Origin: Burkholderia cenocepacia
Lineage (GTDB): Bacteria > Pseudomonadota > Gammaproteobacteria > Burkholderiales > Burkholderiaceae
DNA: 64,000 nucleotides
Direction of reading: 5' to 3'
NCBI RefSeq assembly: GCF_014211915.1
Contig: NZ_CP060041.1
Span: forward strand, 372,001 to 436,000
Below the pieces are notes generated by a model, which saw nothing but the letters and a program-made list of their open reading frames with translations, searched no databases and had not been told where the DNA came from. Position 1 is the stretch's first letter; each line of letters begins with the position of its first letter. The translations under genes and the position numbers were made by a program. Positions 28,479-54,474 of the stretch are shown here, in pieces.

Positions 28479-29330
28479 CTACGCGTGGTCCACCGCGCCA
28501 TTCGCCCGCGCGGTCACTTCGCGGCGATAGCGGTTCAGCTCCTGCGCGGTCGCGAACGTGCGCTCGAACAGGATCGACAGGTTGTGCAGGATCCGCTCGA
28601 CGACCTTCTTCTCCCACTCGCCGTCGAAACGGATCTGCTCGTCGAGCCAGCGCTCGAGCCATGCCGGATCGGGCAGGCGCGACTGCACGGTGTCGCGCGG
28701 GAACAGCGCCTGGTTCACGTGCAGGTTGGTCGGGTGCAGCGGCTTCTCGGTGCGGCGCGCCGACGCCATCAGCACGCCGATCTTCGCGAAGGCGGCCCGT
28801 GCGACGTCGCCGCAGTCGTTCAGCGCTTTCTTCATATAGCGCAGGTACGCGCCGCCATGACGCGCTTCATCGCGCGAAATCGTTTCGTAGATCTGCTTGA
28901 TGACGGGCTCGGTGTGCCAGTCGGCCGCGCAGCGGTACCAGTGGTTCAAACGGATCTCGCCGCAGAAGTGCAGCATCAGCGTCTCGAGCGGCGGCGCCGG
29001 GTCGAACTCGAAGCGCACCGCGTGCAGCTCCGCTTCGGTCGGCACCCTCTCCGGCCTGAAGCGGCGCAGGTATTCCATCAGCACGAGCGCGTGTTTCTGC
29101 TCCTCGAAGAACCACACGCTCATGAACGCGGAAAAGTCGCTGTCGTGCCGGTTGTCGCGCAGGAACATTTCCGTCGCGGGCAGCGCCGACCATTCGGTGA
29201 TCGCGTTCATCCTGATCGTCTCGGCCTGCTCGTCGGTGAGCAGCGCGGGATCGAACCGGTTCCACGGGATGTCCTTCTCCATGTCCCAGCGGACAGCTTC
29301 GAGCGACCTGAAAAGTTCCGGATAGAGCAT
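28479..29330 (-). CDS. Ferritin-like di-iron protein, acyl-ACP-desaturase-like
   Basis: A 283-residue helical protein with the four-helix di-iron pattern E54, E77xxH80 (EEQKH), E125 (GEIRLNHW) and E155xxH158 (DEARH), the same arrangement as soluble stearoyl-ACP desaturases. It probably acts on an ACP-bound acyl chain (desaturation or hydroxylation). It is the second gene of the leftward operon behind the membrane desaturase. An alternative GTG at 29372 would overlap the desaturase stop (GTGA) and add 14 residues; the ATG at 29330 is reported. It may correspond to afcD by position, from memory of the afc nomenclature, so no symbol is given. Confidence 0.83.
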   Translation of the reverse strand: MLYPELFRSLEAVRWDMEKDIPWNRFDPALLTDEQAETIRMNAITEWSALPATEMFLRDNRHDSDFSAFMSVWFFEEQKHALVLMEYLRRFRPERVPTEAELHAVRFEFDPAPPLETLMLHFCGEIRLNHWYRCAADWHTEPVIKQIYETISRDEARHGGAYLRYMKKALNDCGDVARAAFAKIGVLMASARRTEKPLHPTNLHVNQALFPRDTVQSRLPDPAWLERWLDEQIRFDGEWEKKVVERILHNLSILFERTFATAQELNRYRREVTARANGAVDHA

Positions 29331-29368
29331 CGTCGTCACCGTCGTGGCAAGGCGTTCGGCACCGGCGC

Positions 29369-30364
29369 TCACGCCGATTGCGTGGACGCCGGCGCGGCCG
29401 CTTCGGCATCGGGCTCTCGATCGTCCCGATCGTCGTCCACCGAGCGCGGCGACAGCCGGCCGCGCAGCAACGCGTAGTAGAACTGCCGATACGTGCGGTG
29501 GTAATAGCGGATGCGCGGCGCGATCGCGCCATGCAGATCGTGCAACCGCTCGATCGGCAGGCTCGGCATCATGTGATGCTCGACGTGATAGTTGTTGCCG
29601 TTCGTGAACCACGTCATGAACGCGTTGCTCTCGATCGTCCGCGTGTTGCGGAACGGGTCGGTACTCGTCAGGTCGCAGCGATAGTGCTCCGGCATTTCGA
29701 CCAGCGCATGCACGGGCGCCGCGACGAACACGAGCGGCACGACCCACACCCAGACGACGCACCACGTGTGCAAGACAAACGACAGCGCGGCCAGCAGCGC
29801 GATCGCCGCGGCCATCAGCAGATAGTCGCGGCGGATCGCGCGCGACACGAGCGCGTTGTCGCCGAAGCGCGCGCCCGGCACGACGAGCTTCGCGACGTTC
29901 TTCGCGAACTGGATATAGTGCGCGGCCATCGACAGCCGCCAGACCCATAGCCCGACATTGACGACGGGGCTCGCGCCGTACTGGTCGCCGTAGTCGAAGA
30001 ACTCCTTGTTCTCCGGCGTGCCGAGCAGCCGGTGATGACGCAGGTGGCTGTCCTGGTACGCATGGAACGACACGAGCATCGGCATGCCGAGCAGCACGCC
30101 GAACACCATGTTCAGGCGCTTGCTGCGGAACCCCTGGTAATGCAGCGCCTGGTGCTGCAGCTCGACGCCGTGCGCATACATCGCACCGATCAGCAGGATG
30201 CCGACGATCTTCAGGATCACGAGCGCCGACAGCGCGAACATCATCCCGTGCGCGATGAGCGCGACGTAGACCACCAGCTTCAGCGAGAAGACCACGCCGC
30301 TCGGGCGGCTCTTCATGTCTGCAACCGGTTTCGATCGGGCGACAAGCGATGAGGTGACGGACAA
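29369..30364 (-). CDS. afcC: Membrane fatty acid desaturase
   Basis: A 331-residue integral-membrane desaturase. Three histidine clusters typical of the family are present: HGVELQHQALH (about 65-75), HLRHH (107-111) and the late NNYHVEHHMMP box. Hydrophobic spans lie at about 24-62, 87-101 and in the middle of the chain, in the order expected for a di-iron membrane enzyme. The start is taken as TTG 30364 because AAGGAG lies 6-7 bases upstream; the first ATG (30316) has no such site. It heads the leftward operon, facing the acyl-AMP ligase gene across a 372-bp control region. The afcC name is from memory (a desaturase in the AFC cluster) and position. Confidence 0.85.
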   Translation of the reverse strand: MSVTSSLVARSKPVADMKSRPSGVVFSLKLVVYVALIAHGMMFALSALVILKIVGILLIGAMYAHGVELQHQALHYQGFRSKRLNMVFGVLLGMPMLVSFHAYQDSHLRHHRLLGTPENKEFFDYGDQYGASPVVNVGLWVWRLSMAAHYIQFAKNVAKLVVPGARFGDNALVSRAIRRDYLLMAAAIALLAALSFVLHTWCVVWVWVVPLVFVAAPVHALVEMPEHYRCDLTSTDPFRNTRTIESNAFMTWFTNGNNYHVEHHMMPSLPIERLHDLHGAIAPRIRYYHRTYRQFYYALLRGRLSPRSVDDDRDDREPDAEAAAPASTQSA

Positions 30365-32500: not shown

Positions 32501-33207
32501 CGGTCTCGTCCCTCGCCCCGGTGCTCGAACTGCGCGACGTCACGCGCACATACGAAGGCGCGGGCCGCGTCGTCGCGGTGCGCGGCGCGACGATCTCGAT
32601 CGGGCAGCGCGACGTCGTCGCGCTCGTCGGGCCGTCGGGCAGCGGCAAAAGCACGCTGCTCAACCTCGCCGGCTTTCTCGACGTGCCGACGAGCGGCGAA
32701 CGCTGGCTCGAAGGCCGCCGCATCGACGACGCGCCGGACACGCTCGAACGGATTCGCCGCGAACGCATCGGCTTCGTATTCCAGCAATTCAACCTGATTC
32801 CGGTGATGTCGGCGCTCGAGAACGTCGAGCTCGGCTGCTTCGCATGGGGCACGCCGCGCACGCGGCGCGAACGCGCCCGCGCGATGCTCGACGCGGTGGG
32901 GCTCGCCGCGCGCGAGCGGCACCGCCCCGGCGAGCTGTCCGGCGGCGAACAGCAGCGCGTCGCGCTGGCCCGCGCGCTCGCCAAGGAGCCGGCGATCGTG
33001 ATCGCGGACGAGCCGACCGCGAGCCTCGACAGCACCAACGCGCGGGCGGTCGCCGAGCTGATCCTCGACACCAACCGCACGCTGGGCACCGCCTTTCTGA
33101 TTGCGTCGCACGACGATCGTCTGTGCGCGCACCTGCCGCGCCGCATCGAGATGCGCGACGGCGTACCGGGAGTGAATCGTGAACTGGTCGACGTTTGCGT
33201 GGCGTAA
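32497..33207 (+). CDS. ABC transporter ATPase, LolD/MacB type
   Basis: A 236-residue nucleotide-binding subunit with Walker A GPSGSGKS (~47-54), Q-loop FVFQQFNLIPVMSALENV, signature LSGGEQQR and Walker B IVIADEPTASLD. The FQQFNLIPVMSALENVELP-like segment places it in the LolD/MacB/FtsE group, which drives mechanotransmission rather than classic transport. Overlap with the FAAL gene (ATGA) and with the FtsX-type permease (29 bases) shows tight coupling. It would power movement of lipid or lipoprotein cargo from the inner membrane together with the next three genes. Confidence 0.9.
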   Translation: MTVSSLAPVLELRDVTRTYEGAGRVVAVRGATISIGQRDVVALVGPSGSGKSTLLNLAGFLDVPTSGERWLEGRRIDDAPDTLERIRRERIGFVFQQFNLIPVMSALENVELGCFAWGTPRTRRERARAMLDAVGLAARERHRPGELSGGEQQRVALARALAKEPAIVIADEPTASLDSTNARAVAELILDTNRTLGTAFLIASHDDRLCAHLPRRIEMRDGVPGVNRELVDVCVA

Positions 33208-34396
33208 CCTCTGGCGCAACCGGCGCCGCACCGTGCTGACGATGGCGATGATCGGCGTCGCCGCGTTCGCGTCGAGCCTCGCGCTCGGCTACGTGATCGC
33301 GACCTTCGACGCGGTGCGCGAAGGGTCGATCGACAGCGGCGTCGGCCATGTGCAGGTGCTGCACCACGGCTATCTCGACCTGATCGGCGAACGGCCGCTG
33401 CAATACGGGCTGACCGCGGACGAGCAGACCGCCGCCACACAGGCGATTGCAAAACTCCCCGGCGTCGCGACGACCGCGCGCGGCATCGACTTCGACGGGC
33501 TCGTGTCGAACGGCGATCTCAGCTACGGCTTCGTCGGCGAAGGGATCGAGCCGAATCGCGAGCCGCCCGGCTTCTTCGACTATCACACGGTGCTGTCGGG
33601 CCGCTATCTGTCGCCGACGAACGCGGGCACCGAAGTCGTCGTCGGCGCCGAACTCGCGCGCAAGCTCGGCGTGCACGTCGGCTCGGTCGTGCAGCTGATG
33701 GCGTCGACCGCGCACGGCGGCATCAACGCGACCGACGCGCAGATCGTCGGCGTGATGAGCACCGGCAACAAGGACGTCGACGAACGGATCGTCAACGTGA
33801 CGTTCACGGCCGCGCAGGCGCTGCTGCGCACCGACCGCGCGTCGCGCATCGCGGTGTTCCTCGAGGACACCGCCGGCACGCCGGCCGCCGCCGCGACGCT
33901 GCGCGCCGCGCTGCCCACGCTCGACGTGCGGACCTGGGACCAGCTCGTGTCGCTCTATCACCAGGTCGTCGCGCTGTACAAGAACCAGTTCTCGGTGTTC
34001 GGCGCGATTCTCTGCGTGACGATCCTGCTGTCGATGAGCAACTGGATCCTGATGAGCATCGTCGAGCGCCGCCGCGAGATCTCGACGCTGCGCGCGCTCG
34101 GCGTACCGGCCGCCACGGTGCGCGGTGTGCTGATCCAGGAAACCGCGCTGCTCGGCCTGCTCGGCGCGGCCGCCGGCATCGCGCTCGCGCTGCTGACGAT
34201 GGTCGCGCTCAATCACGCGCAGATCCACCTGCCCGCGCCGCCCGGCCGCGTGAAGCCGATCCTGCTCGAATTCACCGTATCGCCCGTCGCCGTGGCCGCC
34301 GTCGAAGCCGCGTTCGTCGTGCTCGGCGTGGCCGCGGCGCTGCTCGCGACGCTCGGGCTCGCGAAACGCAACATCCTCGAAGGACTCGCCCCATGA
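33179..34396 (+). CDS. FtsX-domain ABC permease (LolC/E- or MacB-like)
   Basis: A 405-residue protein with one N-terminal span (about 17-42), a ~220-residue periplasmic domain (MacB-PCD-like) and three C-terminal spans within an FtsX domain. The latter has RREISTLRALGVPAATVRGVLIQE, the cytoplasmic coupling motif. The start is a GTG 29 bases inside the ATPase gene. The architecture is that of type VII (mechanotransmission) ABC systems that extract lipoproteins or lipids or push periplasmic cargo. With the LolA-like and barrel proteins that follow, it may form a dedicated envelope path for the cluster's lipid product. Confidence 0.88.
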   Translation: MNWSTFAWRNLWRNRRRTVLTMAMIGVAAFASSLALGYVIATFDAVREGSIDSGVGHVQVLHHGYLDLIGERPLQYGLTADEQTAATQAIAKLPGVATTARGIDFDGLVSNGDLSYGFVGEGIEPNREPPGFFDYHTVLSGRYLSPTNAGTEVVVGAELARKLGVHVGSVVQLMASTAHGGINATDAQIVGVMSTGNKDVDERIVNVTFTAAQALLRTDRASRIAVFLEDTAGTPAAAATLRAALPTLDVRTWDQLVSLYHQVVALYKNQFSVFGAILCVTILLSMSNWILMSIVERRREISTLRALGVPAATVRGVLIQETALLGLLGAAAGIALALLTMVALNHAQIHLPAPPGRVKPILLEFTVSPVAVAAVEAAFVVLGVAAALLATLGLAKRNILEGLAP

Positions 34397-35145
34397 ATCG
34401 CATTCGCCTCACGTTCGCCACATTCGCCGCGCTCGTCGCGTGCGCGTCGCTCGCCGCGCAGGCGGCCGACGCGCCGACGGCCCAGACCATGCTCGCCCGC
34501 GCCGACGCGTATCGCAGCACGGCCGCCGATACGCAGACGAACATCCAGATCACCAACGAAGTCGGCGGACAGTCCGGCGACGCGACGCGCTATCTCGTCT
34601 ACACGCGCGGCAACGGCGACACGCTCGCGCTGACGCGCAGCGGCGAGAACGACGGCCAGAAGTACCTCGCGACGACGCGCGGGCACTGGTTCTACGTGCC
34701 GAACACGCGCAGCGCGGTACGCATCAACGGAATGCAGCGGCTGCAAGGAGAAGTCGTGATCAGCGACATCACGCGCACGCACTGGGCCGACAGCTATCGC
34801 GCGACGGCCGCGCCCGGCACGACGCCGATCGCCGGCAAGCCGGCCACCGAGCTCGACCTGACCGCGACCGATCCCGACAACGTCTACCCGACGATCAAGC
34901 TGTGGGTCACGCCCGATACCGACGTGCCGGTGCGCGCGCAGTTCTTCCTGGCGAGCGGCCTGCTGTTTCGCAGCGCCGATTTCTCCGCGCCGGTCGACGC
35001 GAACGGCCGCAAGGTGATCCGCAAGATCACGTATCGCAACGAGGTCGAGAAACAGCGCGCGAGCGTCGTCGACATCCTCGACGGCCAGCCGCGCAAGATT
35101 CCGTCGGGCTGGTTCAATCCCGACACGCTCGCCGATGGCCAGTGA
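34393..35145 (+). CDS. LolA-like outer-membrane lipoprotein-sorting protein
   Basis: A 250-residue secreted protein. The signal peptide (about 1-24, ending SLAAQAADA) is followed by a beta-rich LolA/LppX-type fold of the COG2834 group, with GRNGDTLAL-like strands, WFYVPNTRSAVRI, MQRLQGEVVISDI and the late IRKITYRNEVEKQRASVV pair of strands. Such proteins form a half-barrel that shields an acyl chain in the periplasm. Its start overlaps the permease stop by 4 bases and its end overlaps the next gene by 11, so it is an obligate part of the operon. A lipid shuttle role is inferred. Confidence 0.82.
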   Translation: MNRIRLTFATFAALVACASLAAQAADAPTAQTMLARADAYRSTAADTQTNIQITNEVGGQSGDATRYLVYTRGNGDTLALTRSGENDGQKYLATTRGHWFYVPNTRSAVRINGMQRLQGEVVISDITRTHWADSYRATAAPGTTPIAGKPATELDLTATDPDNVYPTIKLWVTPDTDVPVRAQFFLASGLLFRSADFSAPVDANGRKVIRKITYRNEVEKQRASVVDILDGQPRKIPSGWFNPDTLADGQ

Positions 35146-36463: not shown

Positions 36464-36476
36464 CAGGAACCCTGCC

Positions 36477-37562
36477 ATGTCCACGCTTTCCGCTCCCGCC
36501 CCGATCGCACCGCCTCTGCTTTTGCGCGTGGCCGACCAGGCCGCGTATCCGGTGCTGCGCCACCTCGACGCGATCGGCACGCCGCCGCGCGCGGCCGCCC
36601 GGCTCGTCGAGGCCGCCGCCGTGCGGCTGCTCGACAGCGAGATGGTGATCGCGCTGCGCTCCACGGCACCGGACGTACTGCCCGACGCGTCCGCGTCGAC
36701 CCCGCTGCGGCACGACGAAGCGCCGCTCACCGAAGCGCTGCTCGAGCAGATCGGCCGCGAAGGGTTTCATCATCTGTTCAAGCCGTTCATGCGCGCGTTC
36801 ATCCGCATCATGTTCGGGCTGTTCTTCTCGGACGACCAGAATCGCCGCGCCTGCGAGTGCATCGACGCCGGCCACAACTTCGCGTTCCTGATGAGCGACG
36901 GCGGCGGCCCGACGCTCGCTGCCTGGCGCACGGTCGTGCGCAGCGACGACAACGGGCTCGCGCTGACCGTCGACAAGGTGTGGGGCATCGAGGCGCATCG
37001 CGACTGCATGGCCGTGGTCGCCGCGCGCTTGCCGGGCGTGATGTTCCCGGCCGCCTACCTCGTGTGGCCCGACGAATACCGGAAGCTGAAACGCTCGACC
37101 TGCGGCGCGCCGTTCCTCGCGGGCAACCTGCAGCTCGCAAACGTCGGCGGCCAGGTGCGCGTCGCCGCCGAGGACCGCCTGCGGATCGGCGGCCCGACCG
37201 TATTCAACAAATACCTGACCGTCGTGCGGCCGTACTTCGTCCGCGCGCTGATGGCGCACGTCGGCTGGCTCGAGCGGACCGGCCGCGTCGAACTCGACGC
37301 CGACGCGCGCGCCGTGCACCGCTTCATCGCGGACGCCGCGCGCAGCCAGACCGACGATGCGCACTACAGCTTCGGCAAGGTGCAGCGCGTGCTCGCGATC
37401 AAGCTGCTGTCGAACGAGTTCCTGAGCGCGCTCGTGCGCGACGGCAGGGTACCGCTGTTCGACGACCAGCGCGACCTGCTGGCGTTTTCGAAAATGGAAG
37501 GCAGTTCGTACCGTTGTTATCACGAGCTTCGCAAGAGCCTGCGTTGCGAAGCCGGCAGTTGA
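36477..37562 (+). CDS. Divergent acyl-CoA-dehydrogenase-fold protein
   Basis: A 361-residue protein whose middle part (LMSDGGGPTLAAWRTVVR...LTVDKVWGIEAHRDCMAVVAAR, about 137-185) resembles the FAD-binding middle domain of acyl-CoA dehydrogenases. The canonical TEPxxGSD motif is changed to SDGGGPT. The C-terminal helical part lacks the IYEGT catalytic-base motif. It may be a non-catalytic partner or an enzyme with altered chemistry on the ACP-bound chain. CAGGAA precedes the ATG. It lies immediately upstream of the ACP gene (58 bp), suggesting ACP-linked work. Family assignment is tentative. Confidence 0.62.
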   Translation: MSTLSAPAPIAPPLLLRVADQAAYPVLRHLDAIGTPPRAAARLVEAAAVRLLDSEMVIALRSTAPDVLPDASASTPLRHDEAPLTEALLEQIGREGFHHLFKPFMRAFIRIMFGLFFSDDQNRRACECIDAGHNFAFLMSDGGGPTLAAWRTVVRSDDNGLALTVDKVWGIEAHRDCMAVVAARLPGVMFPAAYLVWPDEYRKLKRSTCGAPFLAGNLQLANVGGQVRVAAEDRLRIGGPTVFNKYLTVVRPYFVRALMAHVGWLERTGRVELDADARAVHRFIADAARSQTDDAHYSFGKVQRVLAIKLLSNEFLSALVRDGRVPLFDDQRDLLAFSKMEGSSYRCYHELRKSLRCEAGS

Positions 37563-37620: not shown

Positions 37621-37875
37621 ATGACGACCCAGAACGTTCCGGCCGACGCGCTCGACATCCTGTCCCGCGAAGTCGCGAAGATCCTCAACGTCGAAACCGT
37701 CGACACGGACGCCGGCATCGGCGAACTCGGCATCGATTCGCTGAACATCGTCGAGCTGATCGTGTTCTGCGAACAGCTTTACGGTTCGATCGATCCGGAA
37801 GCGCTGAACATCACGCAGTACACGACGCTGCAGCAGCTCGACGCGCAACTGCGCAGCCAGCAGCACGCGGCCTGA
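37621..37875 (+). CDS. Acyl carrier protein
   Basis: An 84-residue acidic four-helix carrier. The phosphopantetheine attachment Ser is residue 40 in GELGIDSLNIVELI. An AGGAGCTCC site lies upstream of the ATG. It is the only carrier protein in the cluster, so the acyl-AMP from the FAAL, the di-iron enzymes and at least one ketosynthase probably all act on chains tethered here. A phosphopantetheinyl transferase is not encoded nearby and must be supplied elsewhere. Confidence 0.93.
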   Translation: MTTQNVPADALDILSREVAKILNVETVDTDAGIGELGIDSLNIVELIVFCEQLYGSIDPEALNITQYTTLQQLDAQLRSQQHAA

Positions 37876-45223: not shown

Positions 45224-47073
45224 TGAGCGCATACAAGGTGAGCCTGCGCGAACTGCGCTTCTTTCTGTGGGAACTGTTCGAGGCCGACAAGCGGTTCCTG
45301 GCGGAACACGGCCTGTACGGCACGCACGATCGCGCGTCGATCGATGCGCTGCTCGAACGTGCACGCGATTTTGCGCTCGATCTCGGGCGCAGCTACCAGC
45401 AGGCCGACGTCGAGGGCTGCACGCTGCTCGACGACGGCCAGGTACGGATTCCTTCGCATTTCCACGCGCTGTGGGCGCGCTTTCGCGACGAATGGTCGAA
45501 CACGCTGTTCGGCACCGCGCACGGGCTGCCGCCGATCGTCACGCAGATGATCTACGAGATGTTCATGGGCGCGAATCCGTCGTTCATGACCTACGGCGGC
45601 TTCACGCGCCCCGCGGTCAAGCTGCTGCAGATGCACGGCACGCCGCACCAGAAGGCGCTGATCGCACCGCTCGAAGCGTATCGCTGGGACGCGTGCTTCT
45701 GCGCGACCGAGCCGCAGGCCGGCACCGACCTGACCGCCGTGGCGCTGCGCGCGACGCCGCTCGAACGTGATATCTACGCAATCGACGGCGAGAAGGTGTA
45801 CATCTCGGCCGGCATGCACGAACTGACGGAAAACACGTTGTATTTCGTGCTCGGCCGCATCGATACCGCGTCGCCGGATTCGTTTTCGCTGTCGTGCCTC
45901 GTCGTGCCGCGCTTCTGGCCCGACGAGGAAACCGGCGAACTGCGGCCGAACCACGTCGATTGCATCGGCCTGCCGCGCAAGATGGGGCTCAAGGGCTGTG
46001 CGAACACGCATCTGGTATTCGGTTCGAACGGCACGACGAAAGGCTGGCTGCTCGGCGGCCGGCGCAACGTCGGTCTGCTGCAGCTGATGCCGCTGATGAA
46101 CCAGGCGCGCATGAGCACCGGGATGTTCGGCGTCGGCGTCGCGTCGAGCGCGTACCTGCACGCGGTCGAGTATGCGGGCCGCCGGCTGCAGGGCCGGCCG
46201 ATCGAGCGCGCGTCGAACACCCACGCGGCGCGCGTCGCGATCGTCGAGCACGCGGACGTGCAGCGCATGCTGGTCGACATGAAAAGCCGTGTCGACGGCT
46301 GTCGCGGCCTGCTCGGCAAGCTCGCGGCGACCGCGACGCGCGCGGCGATGCTCGAAGCCACGCCCGACGCCGACCCGGCCGAGATCGAGCGCCATCGCAA
46401 GCTGCAACTGTTGCTGACGCCGATCTGCAAGGCGTTCATCTCCGACCAGGCGTGGCGCATCTGCGAAACGGCGATCCAGGTGCACGGCGGGCTCGGCTAT
46501 ACCGATGCGAGCCCGGTCGAGCAGAACGCGCGCGACGTCAAGATCCTGTCGATCTGGGAAGGCACGAACTACATCCAGGCGCAGGATCTCGTGCGCGACA
46601 AGCTCGGCTTCGGCCGCCATTCGCGGCTGATCCAGTACTACCGCGACGAACTCGACGCGTTCCTCGCGCAGCAGCATCACGCCGGCACGCATGCGGAGCT
46701 GCGGCCGCTGTTCGATGCGCTGCGCGCGGGCGCCGACCGGATCGCCGCCGCGCTCGACGACATCGCCCGCGACGTGCAGGACGGCCACACGCATCGCAGC
46801 AGCCAGTTCTATACGCGCTTTCTGGAGATGTTCGGCGTGGTCACGTCGGCGTGGGTGCTGCTCGAATCGGCGACGATCGCCACGCGCCGGCTCGATGCGC
46901 CGGACACCGCCGACGCGCCGGCCGAGCTGGCGTTCTATCGCGGCAAGCTGAAGAGCGCGCGCTACTACTTCGCGAACGTGCTGCCCGTCGTCGACCAGCA
47001 CGCGGCCGTGATCGCCGCGATGGCGCACGCGGCGATCAGCGTCAGCAGCGACGAACTTGCCGCGGTGGAATGA
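45220..47073 (+). CDS. afcE: Acyl-CoA dehydrogenase with extended C-terminus
   Basis: A 617-residue FAD enzyme of the long acyl-CoA dehydrogenase class. The middle domain has CFCATEPQAGTDLTAV (~157-172) and ISAGMHELTEN. The C-terminal helical domain has ICETAIQVHGGLGYTDASPVEQNARD and the catalytic Glu in SIWEGTNYIQAQDLV, followed by a ~120-residue extra domain as in DmdC/FadE5-type enzymes. It would introduce an alpha,beta double bond into an acyl thioester. It has a GAAGGAG site; ATG 45223 is an alternative to 45220. The name afcE (putative acyl-CoA dehydrogenase in the ShvR-regulated cluster affecting lipid phenotypes) is from memory. Confidence 0.88.
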   Translation: MMSAYKVSLRELRFFLWELFEADKRFLAEHGLYGTHDRASIDALLERARDFALDLGRSYQQADVEGCTLLDDGQVRIPSHFHALWARFRDEWSNTLFGTAHGLPPIVTQMIYEMFMGANPSFMTYGGFTRPAVKLLQMHGTPHQKALIAPLEAYRWDACFCATEPQAGTDLTAVALRATPLERDIYAIDGEKVYISAGMHELTENTLYFVLGRIDTASPDSFSLSCLVVPRFWPDEETGELRPNHVDCIGLPRKMGLKGCANTHLVFGSNGTTKGWLLGGRRNVGLLQLMPLMNQARMSTGMFGVGVASSAYLHAVEYAGRRLQGRPIERASNTHAARVAIVEHADVQRMLVDMKSRVDGCRGLLGKLAATATRAAMLEATPDADPAEIERHRKLQLLLTPICKAFISDQAWRICETAIQVHGGLGYTDASPVEQNARDVKILSIWEGTNYIQAQDLVRDKLGFGRHSRLIQYYRDELDAFLAQQHHAGTHAELRPLFDALRAGADRIAAALDDIARDVQDGHTHRSSQFYTRFLEMFGVVTSAWVLLESATIATRRLDAPDTADAPAELAFYRGKLKSARYYFANVLPVVDQHAAVIAAMAHAAISVSSDELAAVE

Positions 47074-47074
47074 C

Positions 47075-48325: not shown

Positions 48326-48353
48326 ACCCTCACTCTCTCGCACAAGGAACGTC

Positions 48354-49016
48354 ATGCTGCTCAAGAACCTGCGCCCGGCGAACGACTACGATCGCTTCGC
48401 CACCGAGACGCTCGAACCGTGGGACCTGCTGTTCATCAGCCGCATCCGCCAGCTGGCGCGCGGGATGACGGCCGGCACGATCGCCGACATCGGCACCGCC
48501 ACCGGCGTCGTGCCGGTGCGGCTCGCGACCGATCCGGCGATGCGCGGCTGGCGCTACGTCGGCATCGACCTCGATCCGGCGATGCTCGACGAAGGCCGCC
48601 CGCGCATCCACGAACTCGGGCTCGACGACACGATCGAGATGCGCGTCGGCGACGCGCTCGCGCTGCCGTTCGACGACGGCACGCTGACGATGGCGGTCGG
48701 CCGCGCGACGCTGCACCACCTGCCCGACAAGGCGCTCAGCCTGACCGAGATGTATCGCGTGCTGGAGCCGGGCGGCATCGCGCTCGTGCACGACATGCGA
48801 CGCGACGCGCCGCAGCACCTGCTCGACCGCTTCACCGAGATGCGCGCGGCCGCCGACTATCCGCCGACCCACGTCGAGGAAAAGATCACGCTCGACGAAG
48901 CGCATGCGCTCGTCGCCGAGGCCGGTCTGGCCGAAGTCGCGTCGATCTACAGCCCGAGCATGGGGCTCGGCGCGCTCGGCTTCGAAATCCTGCTGAAGAA
49001 ACCGGCGCTGGCCTGA
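48354..49016 (+). CDS. SAM-dependent methyltransferase (class I)
   Basis: A 220-residue Methyltransf_11/25-type enzyme. Motif I is IADIGTATGVVPVRLA (~43-58), followed by VGIDLDPAMLDEGR, the DAL-LPF motif (MRVGDALALPFDDGTL) and a post-motif YRVLEPGGIALVHD. Length is standard. CAAGGAACGTC precedes the ATG. It would methylate O, N or C of the small-molecule product or an intermediate. It lies between the citrate-synthase-like and dioxygenase genes, suggesting late tailoring. Confidence 0.9.
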   Translation: MLLKNLRPANDYDRFATETLEPWDLLFISRIRQLARGMTAGTIADIGTATGVVPVRLATDPAMRGWRYVGIDLDPAMLDEGRPRIHELGLDDTIEMRVGDALALPFDDGTLTMAVGRATLHHLPDKALSLTEMYRVLEPGGIALVHDMRRDAPQHLLDRFTEMRAAADYPPTHVEEKITLDEAHALVAEAGLAEVASIYSPSMGLGALGFEILLKKPALA

Positions 49017-49019
49017 GCG

Positions 49020-50093
49020 ATGACCGATCTCGCCTTCCTCGCCGCGCATGCGGCCGTGCGGCTCGGCGCCGACGACGTGCACTGCGCGCCGGTCGCGCCC
49101 GGCGCGACGCTGCCGCTGTGCGTGACGCCGCGCAGCGCCGAACTCGCGACGTCGCCGGAGATGTTCGTCGCATGGTACCGGTCGCGGCTCGACACGATCG
49201 ACACGCTGCTCGACGCATGCGGCGCGCTGCTGTGGCGCGGCTTCGCGGTGCCCGACACCGCCGCGTTCGGCCGCCTCGGCGCGCTGTATCCGGCGCACGC
49301 GAACGGCTATACGGCCGGCGCCGCGCCGCGCAAGCAGATCGACGGCCAGGTCTACGAGTCGACCCGCATGCCGCCGCCGTTCAGGATCGGGCTGCATCAG
49401 GAGATGGCCTACATGCCCGCGTTTCCGCGCCTCGTCGCGTTCTACTGCCGGCAGCCGGCCGACGCGGGCGGCGAAACGCCGATCTGCGACATGCGGCGCG
49501 TGACCGCGCGCGTGCCGGCCGCGCTGCGTGAGCGGTTCGCCGAACGCGGCGTGATGTACCTGCGCAATTTCGCGGCGCCGGGCGACCGCGCGGACGGCCT
49601 CGCGGCGAACCCGAACCTGCCGTTCGCCGCGTACCACCGGCCGTGGGACGACGCATTCGGCACGACCGAGCGCGACGAAGTCGAGCGGCTGTGCGCCGAG
49701 CGCGGCGTCGGCTGCCGCTGGCTCGACGACGGCAGCGTGACCGTGTCGCACGTCGGCAGCGCGCTGCGCACGCATCCGCGCACCGGCGAAACGGTGTGGT
49801 TCAACCAGGCGAGCGCGCAGCACCCGAACCCGCGCTCGATGGGCGAGCTCAGCTATCGCTACCTGCAGCGCATGTACGGCGCGCGCGCCGCGTTCCCGTA
49901 CGAGATCCGCTACGGCGACGGCGCACCGATGCCGTTCGACGATCTGGTGGCGATCTACGACGCGCTCGACGACGAGGAATGCGCGTTCCCGTGGCAGGCC
50001 GGCGACGTGCTCGTCGTCGACAACATGCTGGTCGCGCACGGCCGCAACCCGTACCGGGGCGCGCGCGACACGCAGGTCATGCTGTTCGACTGA
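49020..50093 (+). CDS. TauD/SyrP-like Fe(II)/2-oxoglutarate-type dioxygenase
   Basis: A 357-residue TauD/TfdA-family enzyme. The iron motif H126-x-E128 (LHQEMAY) has Glu in place of the usual Asp, as in SyrP-like hydroxylases and in clavaminate synthase. The distal His is in VVDNMLVAHGRNPYRGAR, with Arg residues that would bind 2-oxoglutarate. Substrate binding probably uses the SDG/FNQASAQHPN region. The gene follows the methyltransferase by 3 bases. It is expected to hydroxylate a carbon of the product or of a tethered amino-acyl unit. Confidence 0.88.
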   Translation: MTDLAFLAAHAAVRLGADDVHCAPVAPGATLPLCVTPRSAELATSPEMFVAWYRSRLDTIDTLLDACGALLWRGFAVPDTAAFGRLGALYPAHANGYTAGAAPRKQIDGQVYESTRMPPPFRIGLHQEMAYMPAFPRLVAFYCRQPADAGGETPICDMRRVTARVPAALRERFAERGVMYLRNFAAPGDRADGLAANPNLPFAAYHRPWDDAFGTTERDEVERLCAERGVGCRWLDDGSVTVSHVGSALRTHPRTGETVWFNQASAQHPNPRSMGELSYRYLQRMYGARAAFPYEIRYGDGAPMPFDDLVAIYDALDDEECAFPWQAGDVLVVDNMLVAHGRNPYRGARDTQVMLFD

Positions 50094-50104
50094 GGATGCC
50101 GACG

Positions 50105-51118
50105 ATGAGCGTTTCGTTTCTGGCGTCCGTGCGCGCGATGTTCGCCCCGCGCGCCGCGTTCGACCGGCCGCGGCGCGCGGGCACGCCGCCGCTGCCCGAC
50201 GCACATGCGCCGGGCGCGGCGCTCGGCGCGCGCGCGATCGACGTCGCGGCCGGCGATTTCCGCTTCTCCGCGCGCCACGTGCGGTTCCGGCTCGGCGCGA
50301 TCACCGCGATCGTCGGGCCGAACGGCTCGGGCAAGACCACGCTGCTCGAAACGCTGCTCGGCTTCCGGCGCGGCGGCAGCGACGTGCGCGTGCTCGACGT
50401 GCCGGCCGAACGCTTCATGCGCGATTCGCGCTCGCTGCAGCGAATCGGCGCGCAATTGCAGAAGGTCGAGTATCCCGATCATCTGCGTGTATCCGAGATC
50501 GTCGCGCTGCACCGCGCGATGTACGCACACACCGATGCGGCGATCACCGACGCGCTCGGCATCGCCGAACTGCTCGACAAGCCGTGCCGCGCGCTGTCGA
50601 AGGGGCAGCGCCAGCGCGTGGACCTGTACGTCGCGCTCGCGCACCGGCCCGAACTGGCTGTGCTCGACGAGCCGTTCACGGGCCTCGACCGTCGCTATGC
50701 GGGCGTCGTGATCGACCTGCTGCGCCACCGCGCGAGCGGCACGAGCGTCGCGATGATCTGCCATTCCGAGGAGGAACTGAGCGTGGTCGACGATCTCGTC
50801 TGGGTGCGCGACGGCGGCGTGCGCTACCAGGGCGACCAGGACACGCTGCGCGCCGAGCTCGTCGGCGATGCGCGCGCGGTCCTGCATTGCCGCGACGCAG
50901 CCGATGCACGCGCGCTGCGCAAGCGGCTCGCGGCGCTGCCCGGCGTGACCGGCGTGCGCGTGTCGGCCGCGCACGTGGTCGAGGCGTTCGGCGATGCGAC
51001 GCTGCATCCGAACGTGCACCGGATCGTCGGCGAACAGGGTATCCAGCATCTCGCGCTCGCGCCGAGCACGCCGGGCGACCTGCTGCGCCTGTGCACCGAG
51101 GGCCCGACCCATGACTAA
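50105..51118 (+). CDS. ABC-2 type exporter ATPase
   Basis: A 337-residue ATPase. A ~45-residue N-tail precedes Walker A GPNGSGKT (~74-81). The signature is degenerate, ALSKGQRQRVDLYVAL (SKGQ for SGGQ), with Walker B LAVLDEPFTGLD and H-loop MICHSEEEL. A C-terminal ~100-residue domain (HCRDAADARALRKRLAALPGV) matches the CcmA/NatA extension. ATG 50105 is chosen because GAGG lies 8 bases before it; ATG 50096 is too close. It overlaps the permease gene by 8 bases. With it, it forms a second, ABC-2 type exporter, likely for the finished product or for self-protection. Confidence 0.9.
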   Translation: MSVSFLASVRAMFAPRAAFDRPRRAGTPPLPDAHAPGAALGARAIDVAAGDFRFSARHVRFRLGAITAIVGPNGSGKTTLLETLLGFRRGGSDVRVLDVPAERFMRDSRSLQRIGAQLQKVEYPDHLRVSEIVALHRAMYAHTDAAITDALGIAELLDKPCRALSKGQRQRVDLYVALAHRPELAVLDEPFTGLDRRYAGVVIDLLRHRASGTSVAMICHSEEELSVVDDLVWVRDGGVRYQGDQDTLRAELVGDARAVLHCRDAADARALRKRLAALPGVTGVRVSAAHVVEAFGDATLHPNVHRIVGEQGIQHLALAPSTPGDLLRLCTEGPTHD

Positions 51119-52190
51119 GGTGTTCCTGATCCTCGTGCGCAACGAGCTGCTCGGCTATCTGCGCAGCCGCTCGTCGCTGTTCTGGACGCTCGTGTTTCCA
51201 GTGTTCCTGCTGAGCGTGATGCTGTTCGCGTTCGGCGGCTCGGGCTCGCTCGGCACGGCCGACATCGCGTTCGACGTGCCCGGCGGCGCGACGCCGTACA
51301 ACCAGGCGTGCAAGGCGGAGATCGTCGCCAGCATGTCGCACAGCGACACGGTGAAGGCGACCTTCGGCGGCCGCGGCACGCCGGCCGAGCGCGTGACCGT
51401 CGTGCTCGGCGCCGACGAGCGCACGCCGGCGACGATCCGCTACGACTTCAACGGCTCGCTCGCGGTGAAGGCGGCGTCGCGGGTCGTCGAGATCGCGCTC
51501 GCACGCTGCGCCGCGCAGCGGCTCGGACTGCCGGCCGCGCAGGCACGCTTCGAGAATGCCGCGCCCACGCGCCGCCCGTTCGACTATGGCGCGTTCTTCG
51601 CGACCGGCATCCTCGTGATGGCGTTCATGGCGATCGGCCTCAACTCGACGACCACCGCGATCGCGGCGCTGCGCGAGCGCAATACGTTCAAGCTGTACGT
51701 GTGCTTCCCGGTCTCGCGCGGCGTGTTCCTCGCCGCGCTGATCGTCGCGCGGATGGCGATGATGGCGCTGTCGGCGCTCGTGCTGCTGACGGTCGCGCGC
51801 GTCGCGTTCGGCATCGCGCTGCCGATCGCGACGCCGGACGGGCTGCGCGCGTTGCCGATCGTGCTGCTCGGCGCGGCGATGGTGCTGAGCATCGGCGTGC
51901 TGCTGGCCAGCCGCACCCGCTCGCTCGCGGCCGCCGAACTCGCGTGCAACGTCACCTACTACCCGCTGCTGTTCTTCAGCGACCTGACGATCCCGATGCA
52001 CGATGCGCCCGCGTGGCTGAAGGCCGGGCTCGCGTTCCTGCCGACCAACCAGTTCGCCGTCGCGCTGCGCGGCGCGCTGGTCGACGGCGCGCCGTACGCG
52101 CAGCTCGCGCCGCAACTGCTCGGCATGACCGCGTGCACCGCGCTGTTCCTGTTCGCCGCCGCGCGGCTGTTCCGCTGGCACGACGCCTGA
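51111..52190 (+). CDS. ABC-2 type exporter permease
   Basis: A 359-residue membrane protein. The first span is at about 20-43. A ~130-residue extracytoplasmic loop follows, then five spans from ~160 onwards, the ABC-2 (NodJ/YhgE-like) topology. The cytoplasmic coupling segment ALRERNTFKLYVCFPVSRGVFLAALI and the ALRGALVDG end loop are typical. It overlaps the ATPase gene. Bacterial ABC-2 pairs at the end of biosynthetic clusters usually export the product. Confidence 0.88.
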   Translation: MTKVFLILVRNELLGYLRSRSSLFWTLVFPVFLLSVMLFAFGGSGSLGTADIAFDVPGGATPYNQACKAEIVASMSHSDTVKATFGGRGTPAERVTVVLGADERTPATIRYDFNGSLAVKAASRVVEIALARCAAQRLGLPAAQARFENAAPTRRPFDYGAFFATGILVMAFMAIGLNSTTTAIAALRERNTFKLYVCFPVSRGVFLAALIVARMAMMALSALVLLTVARVAFGIALPIATPDGLRALPIVLLGAAMVLSIGVLLASRTRSLAAAELACNVTYYPLLFFSDLTIPMHDAPAWLKAGLAFLPTNQFAVALRGALVDGAPYAQLAPQLLGMTACTALFLFAAARLFRWHDA

Positions 52191-52226
52191 CGCGTCGCCC
52201 CGCTGTTTCGACGAAGGAGAGACACG

Positions 52227-52769
52227 ATGAAATCGAACCATCCCATAACCGACTACCTGCTGCACGCGAGCAACTTCCTGCCGGCGATCGTGTTCCTGTT
52301 CTACGGCCGGCTCGGCCCCGAGCAGCCGGACCTGCGCTGGACCCACGCGTTCCTGATCGGCGGCGTGCTCGCACTCGTGCACGGCGCGTGGCTGATGCGC
52401 CGCGCGGAGCGCAACAGCATCGCGCTCGGCGTCGACCTGTTCCTCGTGATCGGCGCGGTGCTCGCGCTCGTCTCGCCGACAGGTAGCCGTCTGTGGGGCG
52501 AGGAACTCGGGCCGGCGGCGATGCTCGTCTGCGTGCTGGTGGTCGGCATCGTGCATACCGCGTGGTCGGACGGCGGCTTCGTCGACGGCACGTTCGTCGA
52601 CCACGCGCGTACACGGTCGCTGTCGCTCGTGCTGCTCGCCGTCACCGTCGTCGCGCTCGCGGTGTCGATCGCGATGCGCCACAGCCCGCTGTGGGGCGGC
52701 GTCGTGCCGCTGATCGCGCTGGTCGTCGTGCGCGGCCGGCTGCGCAAGCAGCTCGCGCGGGCCAGCTGA
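52227..52769 (+). CDS. Six-span inner-membrane protein of unknown function
   Basis: A 180-residue hydrophobic protein. Spans are at about 12-27, 40-57, 66-82, 95-110, 131-150 and 155-172, with short polar loops (GPEQPDLRW, DGGFVDGTFVDHARTR). A good GAAGGAGA site precedes the ATG. No family recognised. It could assist the exporter, act as a carotenoid-synthase-like or DUF-type membrane enzyme, or protect the membrane. Ends 2 bases before the FAD oxidase gene. Confidence 0.68.
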   Translation: MKSNHPITDYLLHASNFLPAIVFLFYGRLGPEQPDLRWTHAFLIGGVLALVHGAWLMRRAERNSIALGVDLFLVIGAVLALVSPTGSRLWGEELGPAAMLVCVLVVGIVHTAWSDGGFVDGTFVDHARTRSLSLVLLAVTVVALAVSIAMRHSPLWGGVVPLIALVVVRGRLRKQLARAS

Positions 52770-52771
52770 CG

Positions 52772-54190
52772 ATGAACGCGCTGCCCGCCCCCGCGGCACA
52801 CGCCGCGCAACGGCACGCGCTCGCCGCGGCACTCGGCGACGGCTGGCTCGAAGGCGCGGCCTGCGAGCCGTATGCGACCGACGTCGTGCAGCACGGCGGC
52901 GTGCCGCTCGGCGTCGCGCGACCGGCTTCGACCGCCGACGTGCGTGCGCTGGCACGCGTCGCCGTCGCGCACCGGATCATGCTCGTCGCCCAGGGCGCGC
53001 GCACCGGGCTCGTCGGCGCGGCCGTGCCCGATCGCAGCGGCACGCAATGCGTGGTGTCGTTCGAGCGGATGCGCACCGTGCGCGCGTTCGATCCGGCCAA
53101 TCGCAGCATCACGGTCGAGGCCGGCGTACGGCTGTCCGACATCAACCGTCTGGCGGGCGAAGCGGGGCTCTGCGTGCCGATCGATCTCGGCAGCGATCCG
53201 GCCGCCGGCGGCCTCGTCGGCGCGAACGCGGGCGGCAGCCGCCTGATCAAGTACGGCGACGTGCGCCGTCACGTGCTCGGCGTCGAAGTGGTGCTTGCGG
53301 ATGAAGCCGGCACCGTGATCGACGCGCTCGCGCCGCTGCGCAAGCGCAACGCGGGCTTCGACGTTGCGCAGTGCTTCATCGGCGCGAATGGCGCGAACGG
53401 CCTCGTCACCGCCGTGTCGTTCGCGCTCGCGCCGCTCGAACGGTCGTCGTGCGCGGCGTTCGTCGCGTTCGCGTCGTACGATGCGGCGCTCGCCGGCCTG
53501 CTCGCGTTCGAGCGCGCATTCGGCGAGTTGCTGTCGGCATTCGAGTTCATGTCGGCGGCGGCGGTCGGCTGTGTCGCCGCCGCGTTTCCGACATTGCGCG
53601 TGCCGTTCGAGACCGACGCTGCCGCGTGCTACGCGCTCGTCGAAATCGCGACCGGCATGCCGGGGCTCGATGCGTTGCTCGAGGAACGCACCGTCGCGAC
53701 GCTCGACGCCCTGGCGAACGAACGCGTCGTGCTCGACGCGGCGTGCGCGCCGGCGGAACGGTTCTGGCGGATTCGCGACGCGCTGCCGGCCGCGGTCGCG
53801 CAGGACGGCCTGCCGCTGTCGTTCGACGTGTCGTTTCCGCGCGGCGCGCTGGCCGGATTCGTCGCCGCCGCCGAGCAGTGGCTCGCCGCCGCGCATCCGG
53901 CGCTGCGCTGTCATGCGTTCGGCCATTTCGGCGACGGCGGCTGCCATCTCGTCGTGTCGATTCCGCATGCCGAGGCAGCACGCTACGGCGCGCTGCAGCA
54001 GGTGGCGCTGCGCGGCGCGCTGTACGACCGCGTCGTACAGGCAGGCGGCTGCTTCAGCGCGGAACACGGCGTCGGGCCGGTCAATATCGCGTACTACCGC
54101 AAGCACGTGCCGGCCGCGCAACGGCAACTCGCCGGCGCCGTCCAGCACGCGATCGATCCGCTCGGCTTGATCGGGCGGGTCCGTTACTGA
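52772..54190 (+). CDS. afcF: FAD-linked oxidase (GlcD / D-2-hydroxyacid dehydrogenase type)
   Basis: A 472-residue flavoenzyme. The PCMH-type FAD domain (~residues 45-225) has ARPASTADVRALARVAVAH, QGARTGLVGAAVP and the SDPAAGGLVGANAGGSRLIKYGDVRRHVLGVEVV core. The C-terminal FAD-oxidase domain ends with HAFGHFGDGGCHLVV and FSAEHGVGPVNIAYY, the metal/active-site motifs of the D-lactate/D-2-hydroxyglutarate group. It would oxidise a 2-hydroxy acid or similar. It is the last enzyme gene of the operon. The symbol reflects memory that afcF is a FAD-dependent oxidoreductase of the ShvR-regulated region. Confidence 0.85.
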   Translation: MNALPAPAAHAAQRHALAAALGDGWLEGAACEPYATDVVQHGGVPLGVARPASTADVRALARVAVAHRIMLVAQGARTGLVGAAVPDRSGTQCVVSFERMRTVRAFDPANRSITVEAGVRLSDINRLAGEAGLCVPIDLGSDPAAGGLVGANAGGSRLIKYGDVRRHVLGVEVVLADEAGTVIDALAPLRKRNAGFDVAQCFIGANGANGLVTAVSFALAPLERSSCAAFVAFASYDAALAGLLAFERAFGELLSAFEFMSAAAVGCVAAAFPTLRVPFETDAAACYALVEIATGMPGLDALLEERTVATLDALANERVVLDAACAPAERFWRIRDALPAAVAQDGLPLSFDVSFPRGALAGFVAAAEQWLAAAHPALRCHAFGHFGDGGCHLVVSIPHAEAARYGALQQVALRGALYDRVVQAGGCFSAEHGVGPVNIAYYRKHVPAAQRQLAGAVQHAIDPLGLIGRVRY

Positions 54191-54222
54191 TGCACCGTTT
54201 CGACACCCCAAGGAAAATTCGC

Positions 54223-54474
54223 ATGATGTCGCCACACCCGCCCAGCCCCGCCGTCACCGCCGAGCCGGACGACGATTCATCGTCGGCGGGCATTCCCGCG
54301 CTGCCTGACTCCGGCGCAATGGTCAACGTGCGCGGCGTCGCGCATGTCATTGAATTGCCGCCGCGTGACCACGCGCGGCCGGCGCTGTGGCGCGAGCTTG
54401 CGCACTGGCGCAACGATCGGTCGGCTGATGACGCATCGGGCGGCGACGCCGTACCGGACGCGCCGCGGGGTTAG
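54223..54474 (+). CDS. Small acidic protein closing the cluster
   Basis: An 83-residue protein; AAGGAA lies 7 bases before the first of two tandem ATGs. Pro/Ser-rich start, acidic DDDSSSAG stretch, then VNVRGVAHVIELPPRDHARPALWRELAHWR, which looks folded. An in-frame ATG at 54190 overlaps the upstream TGA but lacks a ribosome site. No family recognised. It ends 25 bases before the convergent lactonase-like gene and could be a regulatory or assembly factor. Confidence 0.55.
   Translation: MMSPHPPSPAVTAEPDDDSSSAGIPALPDSGAMVNVRGVAHVIELPPRDHARPALWRELAHWRNDRSADDASGGDAVPDAPRG

What the first reader, a model, noticed from the sequence alone, without database searches (positions are those of the whole stretch)
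28479..54474. A ~26-kb lipid biosynthesis and export cluster with unknown product chemistry
FAAL, ACP, three thiolase-fold proteins, two ACAD-fold proteins, two ferritin-like di-iron enzymes, a membrane desaturase, PLP decarboxylase plus acyl ligase, citrate-synthase-like enzyme, methyltransferase, TauD and FAD oxidases, and two exporters are packed together next to a ShvR-like regulator. There is no NRPS or modular PKS. The combination does not match any classic pathway I can name, although position and size match the afc (antifungal, membrane-associated) region. A modified, possibly N-containing fatty acid derivative is predicted.
Basis: partly seen in the sequence, partly recalled or inferred. 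Interest (0 to 1): 0.9.

Follow-up and report, generated by a model that had tools for sequence, protein, structure and literature searches.

The report
Known afc antifungal lipopeptide gene cluster
This stretch is the afc gene cluster, which in close relatives makes the already described antifungal lipopeptide AFC-BC11; comparing it with relatives suggests a likely route to the molecule's odd acid tail and shows that its predicted aspartate-loading enzyme belongs to a family often found near exosortase genes in other bacteria, where it would likely make beta-alanine units.

Summary
The window holds shvR plus 24 intact afc genes (26867-54190), 98% identical over 22 kb to a B. cenocepacia replicon. 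New here: (1) afc-type clusters also occur in Pseudomonas, Chromobacterium, Trinickia and Robbsia, often without the lysine desaturase AfcC and some exporter genes. (2) The bolagladin cluster shares A, K, N, F, D, O-R, E, S, T and U but has no detectable J, L, M or X. This puts the unassigned TauD enzyme AfcU with AfcF, AfcS and AfcT. I infer a relay (hydroxylate, oxidise, condense, methylate) for the tail step the authors call enigmatic; it fits the published shunt formulas but is untested. (3) AfcQ scores above the cut-off of TIGR03098, the orphan exosortase A-associated ligase; 27 of 27 other members examined keep its aspartate-orienting arginine, against 0 of 11 control ligases. Verdict: already known cluster, two testable extensions.

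The parts
26867..27859 (-). shvR, LysR-type regulator
   Evidence: Pfam LysR_substrate and HTH_1; ShvR role from PMC6301696
28479..29330 (-). afcD, ferritin-like acyl-ACP desaturase-like (dispensable for product in PMC12186527); a GTG start at 29339 is also possible
   Evidence: 91% to bol counterpart
29369..30316 (-). afcC, membrane di-iron desaturase (acts on the C-terminal Lys in PMC12186527)
   Evidence: PF00487
30713..32500 (+). afcA, fatty acyl-AMP ligase (start uncertain)
   Evidence: PF00501
32497..33207 (+). afcB, ABC ATPase, LolD/MacB-like but below family cut-offs
33179..34396 (+). afcG, MacB/FtsX-type permease, LolC/E-like but below cut-off
34393..35145 (+). afcH, LolA-like periplasmic carrier
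   Evidence: PF17131
35135..36463 (+). afcI, outer-membrane channel per PMC12186527
   Evidence: no family hit here; assignment from the paper
36477..37562 (+). afcJ, acyl-CoA/ACP dehydrogenase fold (predicted)
   Evidence: no Pfam/NCBIfam hit; AF2 model pLDDT 79.5, Foldseek ACADs
37621..37875 (+). afcK, sole carrier protein, Ser40 present
   Evidence: PF00550
37883..38758 (+). afcL, KAS III-like acyltransferase per PMC12186527, Cys111 present
   Evidence: no Pfam hit
38760..39389 (+). afcM, essential per PMC12186527, function unknown
   Evidence: no Pfam hit, no significant fold match
39391..40374 (+). afcN, AurF/acyl-ACP desaturase-like di-iron enzyme
   Evidence: PF11583
40378..41361 (+). 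afcO, KAS III-like, active-site Cys128
41351..42526 (+). afcP, PLP decarboxylase (fold type III)
   Evidence: PF00278/PF02784
42543..44132 (+). afcQ, L-Asp adenylating enzyme per PMC12186527; above the TIGR03098 cut-off
   Evidence: Arg313 and Lys505 (Arg311/Lys503 of the paper)
44129..45223 (+). afcR, KAS III-like per PMC12186527, Thr157 in place of the active-site Cys
   Evidence: no Pfam hit
45220..47073 (+). afcE, acyl-CoA dehydrogenase (homologue of BolQ)
   Evidence: PF00441/PF12806
47075..48325 (+). afcS, citrate synthase fold
   Evidence: PF00285; catalytic residues kept
48354..49016 (+). afcT, SAM O-methyltransferase
49020..50093 (+). afcU, TauD-type Fe(II)/2-oxoglutarate oxygenase, HxE...H triad
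   Evidence: PF02668
50105..51118 (+). afcV, ABC ATPase (ABC-2 exporter)
51111..52190 (+). afcW, ABC-2 permease
52227..52769 (+). afcX, small membrane protein, present in afc-type loci where the contig reaches it
   Evidence: no family
52772..54190 (+). afcF, FAD-linked 2-hydroxyacid dehydrogenase family
   Evidence: PF01565/PF02913; best named PDB relative D-2-hydroxyglutarate dehydrogenase

Best explanation
The window holds the complete afc cluster (shvR plus 24 afc genes), whose product in close relatives is the antifungal lipopeptide AFC-BC11, so this strain would likely make it too. Shown by others in vitro or by deletion (PMC12186527): AfcQ adenylates L-Asp and loads it on carrier AfcK, AfcP decarboxylates it to beta-alanine, and the pair repeats; AfcA adds an acyl chain to (beta-Ala)3-AfcK; AfcL passes (beta-Ala)3 to lysyl-CoA; AfcC desaturates the lysine; AfcS and AfcF are needed for the malic-acid end and AfcT methylates it. 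Proposed by those authors: AfcE makes the dehydro-beta-alanines. Inferred here for the unsolved acid tail: the chain's far end starts as a succinyl-type carboxylate (a C18 dioyl chain); AfcU would hydroxylate it next to that carboxylate; AfcF would oxidise the 2-hydroxy acid to a 2-oxo acid; AfcS would condense it with acetyl-CoA to the branched malate; AfcT then methylates the hydroxyl. Whether this happens on a C4 starter thioester or on the finished chain is open. Also inferred: AfcB-G-H-I would act as a Lol-like route carrying the lipopeptide to the outer membrane. My odds: cluster identity about 0.95, relay about 0.45.
For: Identity: 98.0% over 22 kb to B. cenocepacia CP091014 and 92.9% to B. 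arboris; gene order as published; AfcK Ser40 and AfcL Cys111 at the paper's numbering, AfcQ Arg/Lys at +2. Relay: the bolagladin cluster, whose product carries the same O-methyl citrate-derived end, keeps U at 78%, F 56%, S 72% and T 85%, while in its main text BolT appears only twice, as part of the name bolA-bolT, and 'TauD' not at all. AfcF's best named solved relative is D-2-hydroxyglutarate dehydrogenase (E 1.1e-49; an unnamed 'putative oxidoreductase' ranks first), and GHxxDGGxH and EHG are kept in 11 of 11. AfcU HxE...H is kept in 14 of 14 and the AfcS His/His/Asp in 14 of 14 (window plus 13 of 25 cluster loci). Arithmetic: the two compounds of delta-afcS and delta-afcF (C33H51N5O8, C33H51N5O9) are exactly the chain before and after one hydroxylation; then -2H, +acetate, +CH2 gives C36H55N5O11 = AFC-BC11.
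Against: The relay predicts a 2-oxo compound (m/z 660.36) in delta-afcS; none is mentioned in the main text. AfcS keeps three Arg that align with oxaloacetate-binding Arg of citrate synthases (roles recalled), and BolR turns free oxaloacetate into citrate, which favours an oxaloacetate-like substrate over a long-chain keto acid. The paper lists myristate as one of AfcA's major substrates, and short (C3) to long (C19) and dicarboxylic acids as not activated, which fits a C14 chain loaded first. One Burkholderia genome (G035) has U, S and T but no AfcF orthologue (best 37%). PMC6301696 reports the citrate synthase gene as dispensable and afcF as needed for antifungal activity, although both deletions give the same compounds in PMC12186527. 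Expression in this strain is unknown; H111's cluster is reported as not expressed.
Confidence: 0.9

Rival explanations
1. Published views of the acid tail: free or CoA-bound citrate made by AfcS/BolR is the building block, either priming fatty acid synthesis through a KAS III-like enzyme (bolagladin paper) or being coupled late to the terminal methyl of a myristoyl chain (AFC paper). AfcU does something else, such as a desaturation.
For: BolR makes citrate from oxaloacetate and acetyl-CoA in vitro; AfcA loads myristate and not dicarboxylic acids; the AfcS oxaloacetate-type arginines are kept.
Against: Neither version, in the text read, gives a job to AfcU/BolT, which is in the cluster in 24 of 25 loci, the 25th (L031) ending inside afcS before U, or explains why loss of AfcF mimics loss of AfcS. 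C-C bond formation at an unactivated methyl has no precedent that I recall.
Confidence: 0.4
2. The cluster makes a modified N-containing fatty acid of unknown structure.
For: Gene content alone, without the literature, allows it.
Against: The orthologous cluster's product is a solved lipopeptide and the diagnostic residues are the same.
Confidence: 0.03
3. The cluster is intact but silent or produces only trace product in this strain.
For: H111 is reported not to express its afc cluster (PMC6301696).
Against: All frames are open and shvR is present. Expression cannot be read from sequence.
Confidence: 0.25
4. For the exosortase link: the TIGR03098 ligases activate another amino dicarboxylate (Glu, 3-methyl-Asp, diaminopimelate) rather than L-Asp, so the shared arginine only means 'side-chain carboxylate'.
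For: VinN, which has the same arginine, uses beta-methyl-aspartate; the paired decarboxylases are only 24-31% identical to AfcP, and the two sampled score highest on dCO2ase_PEP1 and next on lysA.
Against: AfcQ itself is above the TIGR03098 cut-off and is reported as L-Asp specific.
Confidence: 0.35

Closest known systems
afc cluster / AFC-BC11 of the Burkholderia cepacia complex (PMC12186527, PMC6301696)
   Same: Gene set, order, regulator and the tested diagnostic residues
   Different: Nothing found; product not measured in this strain
bolagladin (bol) cluster of B. gladioli (PMC7756342)
   Same: shvR-like regulator, A, K, N, F, D, O, P, Q, R, E, S, T, U; same O-methyl citrate-derived acyl end and dehydro-beta-alanine
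   Different: bol has a four-module NRPS; no hit at E <= 1e-3 to J, L, M, X, B/G/H/I or V/W in the 59 kb read, and only a 22% relative of AfcC (the same genome has a 70% AfcC elsewhere). Its AfcO has Ser for Cys. In unrooted trees the O-U block groups with Burkholderia afc (support 0.926), the A/K/N/F block outside it, so bol looks like a mosaic
Exosortase A-associated ligase/decarboxylase/ACP set (TIGR03098, TIGR03099)
   Same: AfcQ above the TIGR03098 cut-off; same Arg in 27 of 27 others; decarboxylase near in 22 of 27, carrier in 11 of 13 examined
   Different: AfcP is below the TIGR03099 cut-off; no exosortase in the window's genome
Glutarate hydroxylase (CsiD/GlaH) plus 2-hydroxyglutarate oxidase (LhgO), recalled
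   Same: Would use the same logic: hydroxylate next to a carboxylate with Fe/2-oxoglutarate, then flavin oxidation to the keto acid
   Different: Recalled analogy only, no homology claimed or tested; AfcF is of the D-2-hydroxyglutarate dehydrogenase family
LolCDE/LolA lipoprotein release route
   Same: ATPase, FtsX-type permease and LolA-like carrier in one operon
   Different: AfcB and AfcG are well below the Lol family cut-offs (193.6 of 307.75; 98.4 of 362.45 bits)

Membership tests
afc / AFC-BC11 cluster | 24 afc genes in two divergent units with adjacent shvR | tested here: met
   letters assigned by order and predicted function
afc / AFC-BC11 cluster | AfcK Ser40, AfcL Cys111, AfcQ Arg311/Lys503, AfcR Thr in the active site | tested here: met
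   (AfcQ numbered +2 here)
afc / AFC-BC11 cluster | makes MMFA-(DBA)3-DHLys | not testable with these tools
   needs mass spectrometry
bolagladin cluster | multimodular NRPS (BolH) | tested here: not met
   no NRPS in 26867-54190
TIGR03098 (exosortase A-associated ligase) | score above curated cut-off 592.35 | tested here: met
   AfcQ 637.9 bits
TIGR03099 (exosortase A-associated decarboxylase) | score above curated cut-off 478.45 | tested here: not met
   AfcP 89 bits, though it is its best NCBIfam match
Exosortase A system | an exosortase (PF09721) in the genome | tested here: not met
   0 matches in G000
LolCDE | LolD and LolC/E family cut-offs | tested here: not met
D-2-hydroxyglutarate dehydrogenase / GlcD superfamily (AfcF) | FAD_binding_4 + FAD-oxidase_C with the GHxxDGxxH and EHG motifs | tested here: met
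   (motif roles recalled)
GlcD glycolate oxidase equivalog (AfcF) | score above cut-off 567.9 | tested here: not met
   155.1 bits

The most novel reading that the evidence does not exclude
The aspartate-to-beta-alanyl carrier machine of afc (AfcQ-AfcP-AfcK) is the characterised branch of a much wider system: the orphan ligase, decarboxylase and carrier protein near exosortase A genes across Pseudomonadota load L-Asp through its side-chain carboxylate, decarboxylate it and so make beta-alanyl units, perhaps oligomers, for the exopolysaccharide/PEP-CTERM surface. (Separate second reading, also about 0.45: in afc itself AfcU-AfcF-AfcS-AfcT form a hydroxylate-oxidise-condense-methylate relay that builds the O-methyl malate tail.)
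Probability: 0.45. Interest if true: 0.65.

Novelty: already known. Interest (0 to 1): 0.45.

Why it matters
The cluster itself is known, so nobody needs to hunt for its product. The comparison makes two open points testable. The authors of the structure paper call the acyl-chain maturation enigmatic; a single afcU deletion with predicted masses would discriminate between the models. The exosortase A-associated ligase and decarboxylase carry only 'hypoth_equivalog' models at NCBI; AfcQ gives them a concrete predicted substrate. The cluster's occurrence in Pseudomonas (P. fragi, P. helleri and others, food-associated species by recall) and in Chromobacterium gives non-Burkholderia sources of related lipopeptides and enzymes.

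Tried and rejected
Rejected: unknown product (literature). Rejected: AfcJ as an orphan fold (one search shows an ACAD fold). No result: AfcM fold (model pLDDT 70.7; best Foldseek E 0.1), so I give it no function; the paper's 'UDP-glycosyltransferase-type' label was neither confirmed nor refuted, and AfcM was not run against NCBIfam. Rejected as sole signal: AfcQ Asp213, because ordinary A domains have it too; only Arg313 discriminates. My first carrier-protein searches in exosortase loci (regex: one doubtful hit; AfcK profile: none) failed; a profile built from two neighbouring ORFs then found carriers in 11 of 13 stretches, two of them the seeds and two weak (E about 1e-5). The phylum sample of 398 genomes gave no true afc cluster beyond the own genome. 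In one search I used the window plus 13 of the 25 cluster loci held; the 12 left out were 9 near-identical Burkholderia, two Pseudomonas and one truncated Chromobacterium. In one search rows not spanning both columns were dropped (the loci L004 and L005 gave none).

'Not in print' here means only that these showed no paper linking TIGR03098-type ligases to VinN/aspartate (searches listed in full; one search listed 20 of 125, none with exosortase A) and none on afc in Pseudomonas or Chromobacterium (one search listed 20 of 25; 0 mentions of either genus in the main text of PMC12186527). Supplements were not readable. Seen of papers: PMC12186527 main text; PMC7756342 two of five parts plus passages; PMC6301696, PMC5964159 and PMC2907700 passages only; all others listings only.


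Full report
WHAT IT IS. The window is G000:C3:372001-436000 of a 7.6-Mb, four-contig genome. Its 28-50 kb part is 98.0% identical over 22 kb to B. cenocepacia CP091014 and 92.9% over 98% of it to B. arboris. Gene models give shvR at 26867-27859 and 24 afc genes: D and C on the minus strand; A, B, G, H, I, J, K, L, M, N, O, P, Q, R, E, S, T, U, V, W, X and F on the plus strand. I assigned the letters by matching order and predicted function to PMC12186527 and PMC6301696. All frames are open.

PRODUCT. Zhong et al. 2025 (PMC12186527; main text read) isolated AFC-BC11, C36H55N5O11: an O-methyl malic-acid fatty chain, three dehydro-beta-alanines and dehydrolysine. In vitro: AfcQ activates L-Asp and loads AfcK repeatedly, AfcP decarboxylates it, AfcA adds myristate to (beta-Ala)3-AfcK, and AfcL moves (beta-Ala)3 to lysyl-CoA. 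By deletion: AfcC desaturates Lys, AfcS and AfcF are needed for the malate end, AfcT methylates, afcD and afcI are dispensable, and afcJ, L, M, N, O, P and shvR are essential. Left open there: the tail chemistry and final release; AfcR, AfcU and most membrane proteins have no tested role in the text read. The window's AfcK Ser40 and AfcL Cys111 match the paper's numbering; AfcQ Arg and Lys are two residues later.

WHERE ELSE IT OCCURS. A scan of one genome per species with an AfcR alignment (A1) gave 23 loci: 11 Burkholderia, Robbsia, Trinickia, 6 Pseudomonas and 4 Chromobacterium. All carry J to R and E as far as the contig reaches. The 6 Pseudomonas loci lack B/G/H/I between A and J, and only distant ABC relatives (28-41% to AfcB, 25-33% to AfcG) lie in the flanks read. 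Three Chromobacterium loci also lack V/W between U and X; the fourth ends earlier. The lysine desaturase AfcC has no orthologue in the whole genomes of the 6 Pseudomonas, 4 Chromobacterium and 1 Trinickia (0 of 11; best weak hits 23-32%), but Robbsia has one (67%). So those 11 products would likely keep saturated lysine. Frequencies: strong AfcR match (E < 1e-50; own, bol and G035 included) in 21 of 65 Burkholderia genomes, 22 of 398 Burkholderiaceae, 5 of 19 Chromobacterium; AfcN orthologue in 5 of 398 Pseudomonas. In 398 Pseudomonadota genomes only the own genome had a true AfcN orthologue; nine others matched at 29-40%.

MODULES. In the B. gladioli-like genome G014 the bol cluster (four A-domain hits upstream) holds shvR 61%, A 52%, K 67%, N 72%, F 56%, D 91%, O 74%, P 72%, Q 75%, R about 73%, E 81%, S 72%, T 85% and U 78%, with no hit at E <= 1e-3 to J, L, M, X or the exporter genes. 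AfcM diverges fast (32-40% outside Burkholderia and Robbsia), so its absence is the weakest of these. Bolagladins have one dehydro-beta-alanine, no lysine and the same O-methyl citrate-derived acyl end. So U, F, S and T go with the acid tail, while J, L, M and X go with the trimer/lysine part or its handling. AfcO keeps its Cys in 13 of 14 and has Ser only in bol. Its putative His partner also varies in G035 and in three of four Pseudomonas shown, so I only suggest that AfcO catalysis belongs to the afc-specific part. AfcR has Thr in 14 of 14.

THE TAIL RELAY (inferred). The two compounds seen in both delta-afcS and delta-afcF are C33H51N5O8 and C33H51N5O9: by formula, the peptide with a C18 dioyl chain and the same plus one oxygen. 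Adding O, removing H2, adding acetate and adding CH2 gives AFC-BC11 exactly. A TauD oxygenase (AfcU), a flavin 2-hydroxyacid dehydrogenase relative (AfcF; D-2-hydroxyglutarate dehydrogenase E 1.1e-49), a citrate synthase fold (AfcS) and a methyltransferase (AfcT) are the four enzymes those four steps need. In the published models AfcU has no role and the two compounds come from surrogate units. Against the relay stand the missing keto compound, the conserved oxaloacetate-type arginines, BolR's activity on oxaloacetate, AfcA's C14 preference, the AfcF-less cluster in G035 and the differing antifungal phenotypes of the citrate synthase and afcF mutants. In 6 of 6 Pseudomonas loci AfcE and AfcS are one 998-1000-residue frame, against 0 of 7 other loci checked. 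That fusion suggests the two act on the same carrier-bound chain, which favours late timing; the arginines favour early timing. I put the relay at about 0.45.

THE EXOSORTASE LINK. AfcQ scores 637.9 bits on TIGR03098 (cut-off 592.35), the exosortase A-associated ligase, and AfcP's best NCBIfam match is TIGR03099, though below cut-off. TIGR03098 at E <= 1e-150 is in 28 of 299 Pseudomonadota genomes, own included, 18 over cut-off. All 27 others, 38-50% identical to AfcQ, keep Asp213 and Arg313 in GLTE(A/S)FRS; Arg313 is absent from 11 of 11 other AMP-binding enzymes compared, while BolO has it. Arg311 (here 313) is the residue proposed to hold the alpha-carboxylate so that the side-chain carboxylate is activated. 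An AfcP-like gene lies in 20 of 27 short loci of about 4 kb and in two more of the 13 longer stretches fetched, so in 22 of 27; three of the five without were examined only over the short locus. Carrier proteins are in 11 of 13 stretches. Exosortase is in 20 of 27 genomes, which by my reading of the coordinates is within 45 kb of the ligase in 15 and within 12.5 kb in 12; so seven of these genomes have the ligase and no exosortase. Of the neighbours sampled, two decarboxylases pass TIGR03099, one hydrolase passes TIGR03100 and one TIGR03101, and two hydrolases match TIGR03101 below cut-off. The window's genome has no exosortase. So the claim is shared chemistry, not membership of an exosortase system.

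EXPORT. AfcB, G and H resemble LolD, LolC/E and LolA by family but AfcB and G miss the Lol cut-offs and AfcH has no NCBIfam hit; together with AfcI this suggests a Lol-like path to the outer membrane. No orthologues lie in the Pseudomonas, Chromobacterium and bol loci, so they are probably not needed for the chemistry.

VERDICT. Observation confirmed, novelty claim refuted by published work, with two testable extensions.

Noticed in passing
L021-L024, L027, L029 (about 11.0-14.0 kb in each): AfcE and AfcS are fused in one 998-1000-residue frame in 6 of 6 Pseudomonas loci.
   Followed up: partly
L025:18070-19449 and L065:7358-8752: A diaminobutyrate aminotransferase (TIGR00709 above cut-off) sits at the end of the cluster in one Chromobacterium and in the divergent Burkholderia G035, hinting at diaminobutyrate in place of lysine.
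   Followed up: partly
G035:C1:3489-3511 kb (L064, L065): A Burkholderia genome carries a distant afc-type cluster (AfcR about 40%, grouping with Trinickia) without an AfcF orthologue; perhaps horizontal transfer.
   Followed up: partly
L080:7545-10346: The B. gladioli-like genome has an isolated shvR (73%) and afcC (68%) pair away from bol, perhaps the remnant of a lost afc cluster.
   Followed up: no
G011:C3:448155-449242 (L051, L060): AfcR lies in two overlapping frames in this genome, and a B. contaminans protein (P0030) covers only part of AfcR; left as found.
   Followed up: no
bol loci L068, L062, L063: The bol O-U block groups with B. singularis-type afc (support 0.926), while its A/K/N/F block falls outside Burkholderia afc, Robbsia, Trinickia and G035 in an unrooted tree: a mosaic cluster.
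   Followed up: partly
window 55691-58666 and 24243-25847: TRAP transporter genes (DctM, DctP) flank the cluster on the right; an MFS transporter lies on the left.
   Followed up: no
P0032: A 221-residue protein named OmpA family covers 38% of AfcR at 96% identity; perhaps a mis-called frame.
   Followed up: no
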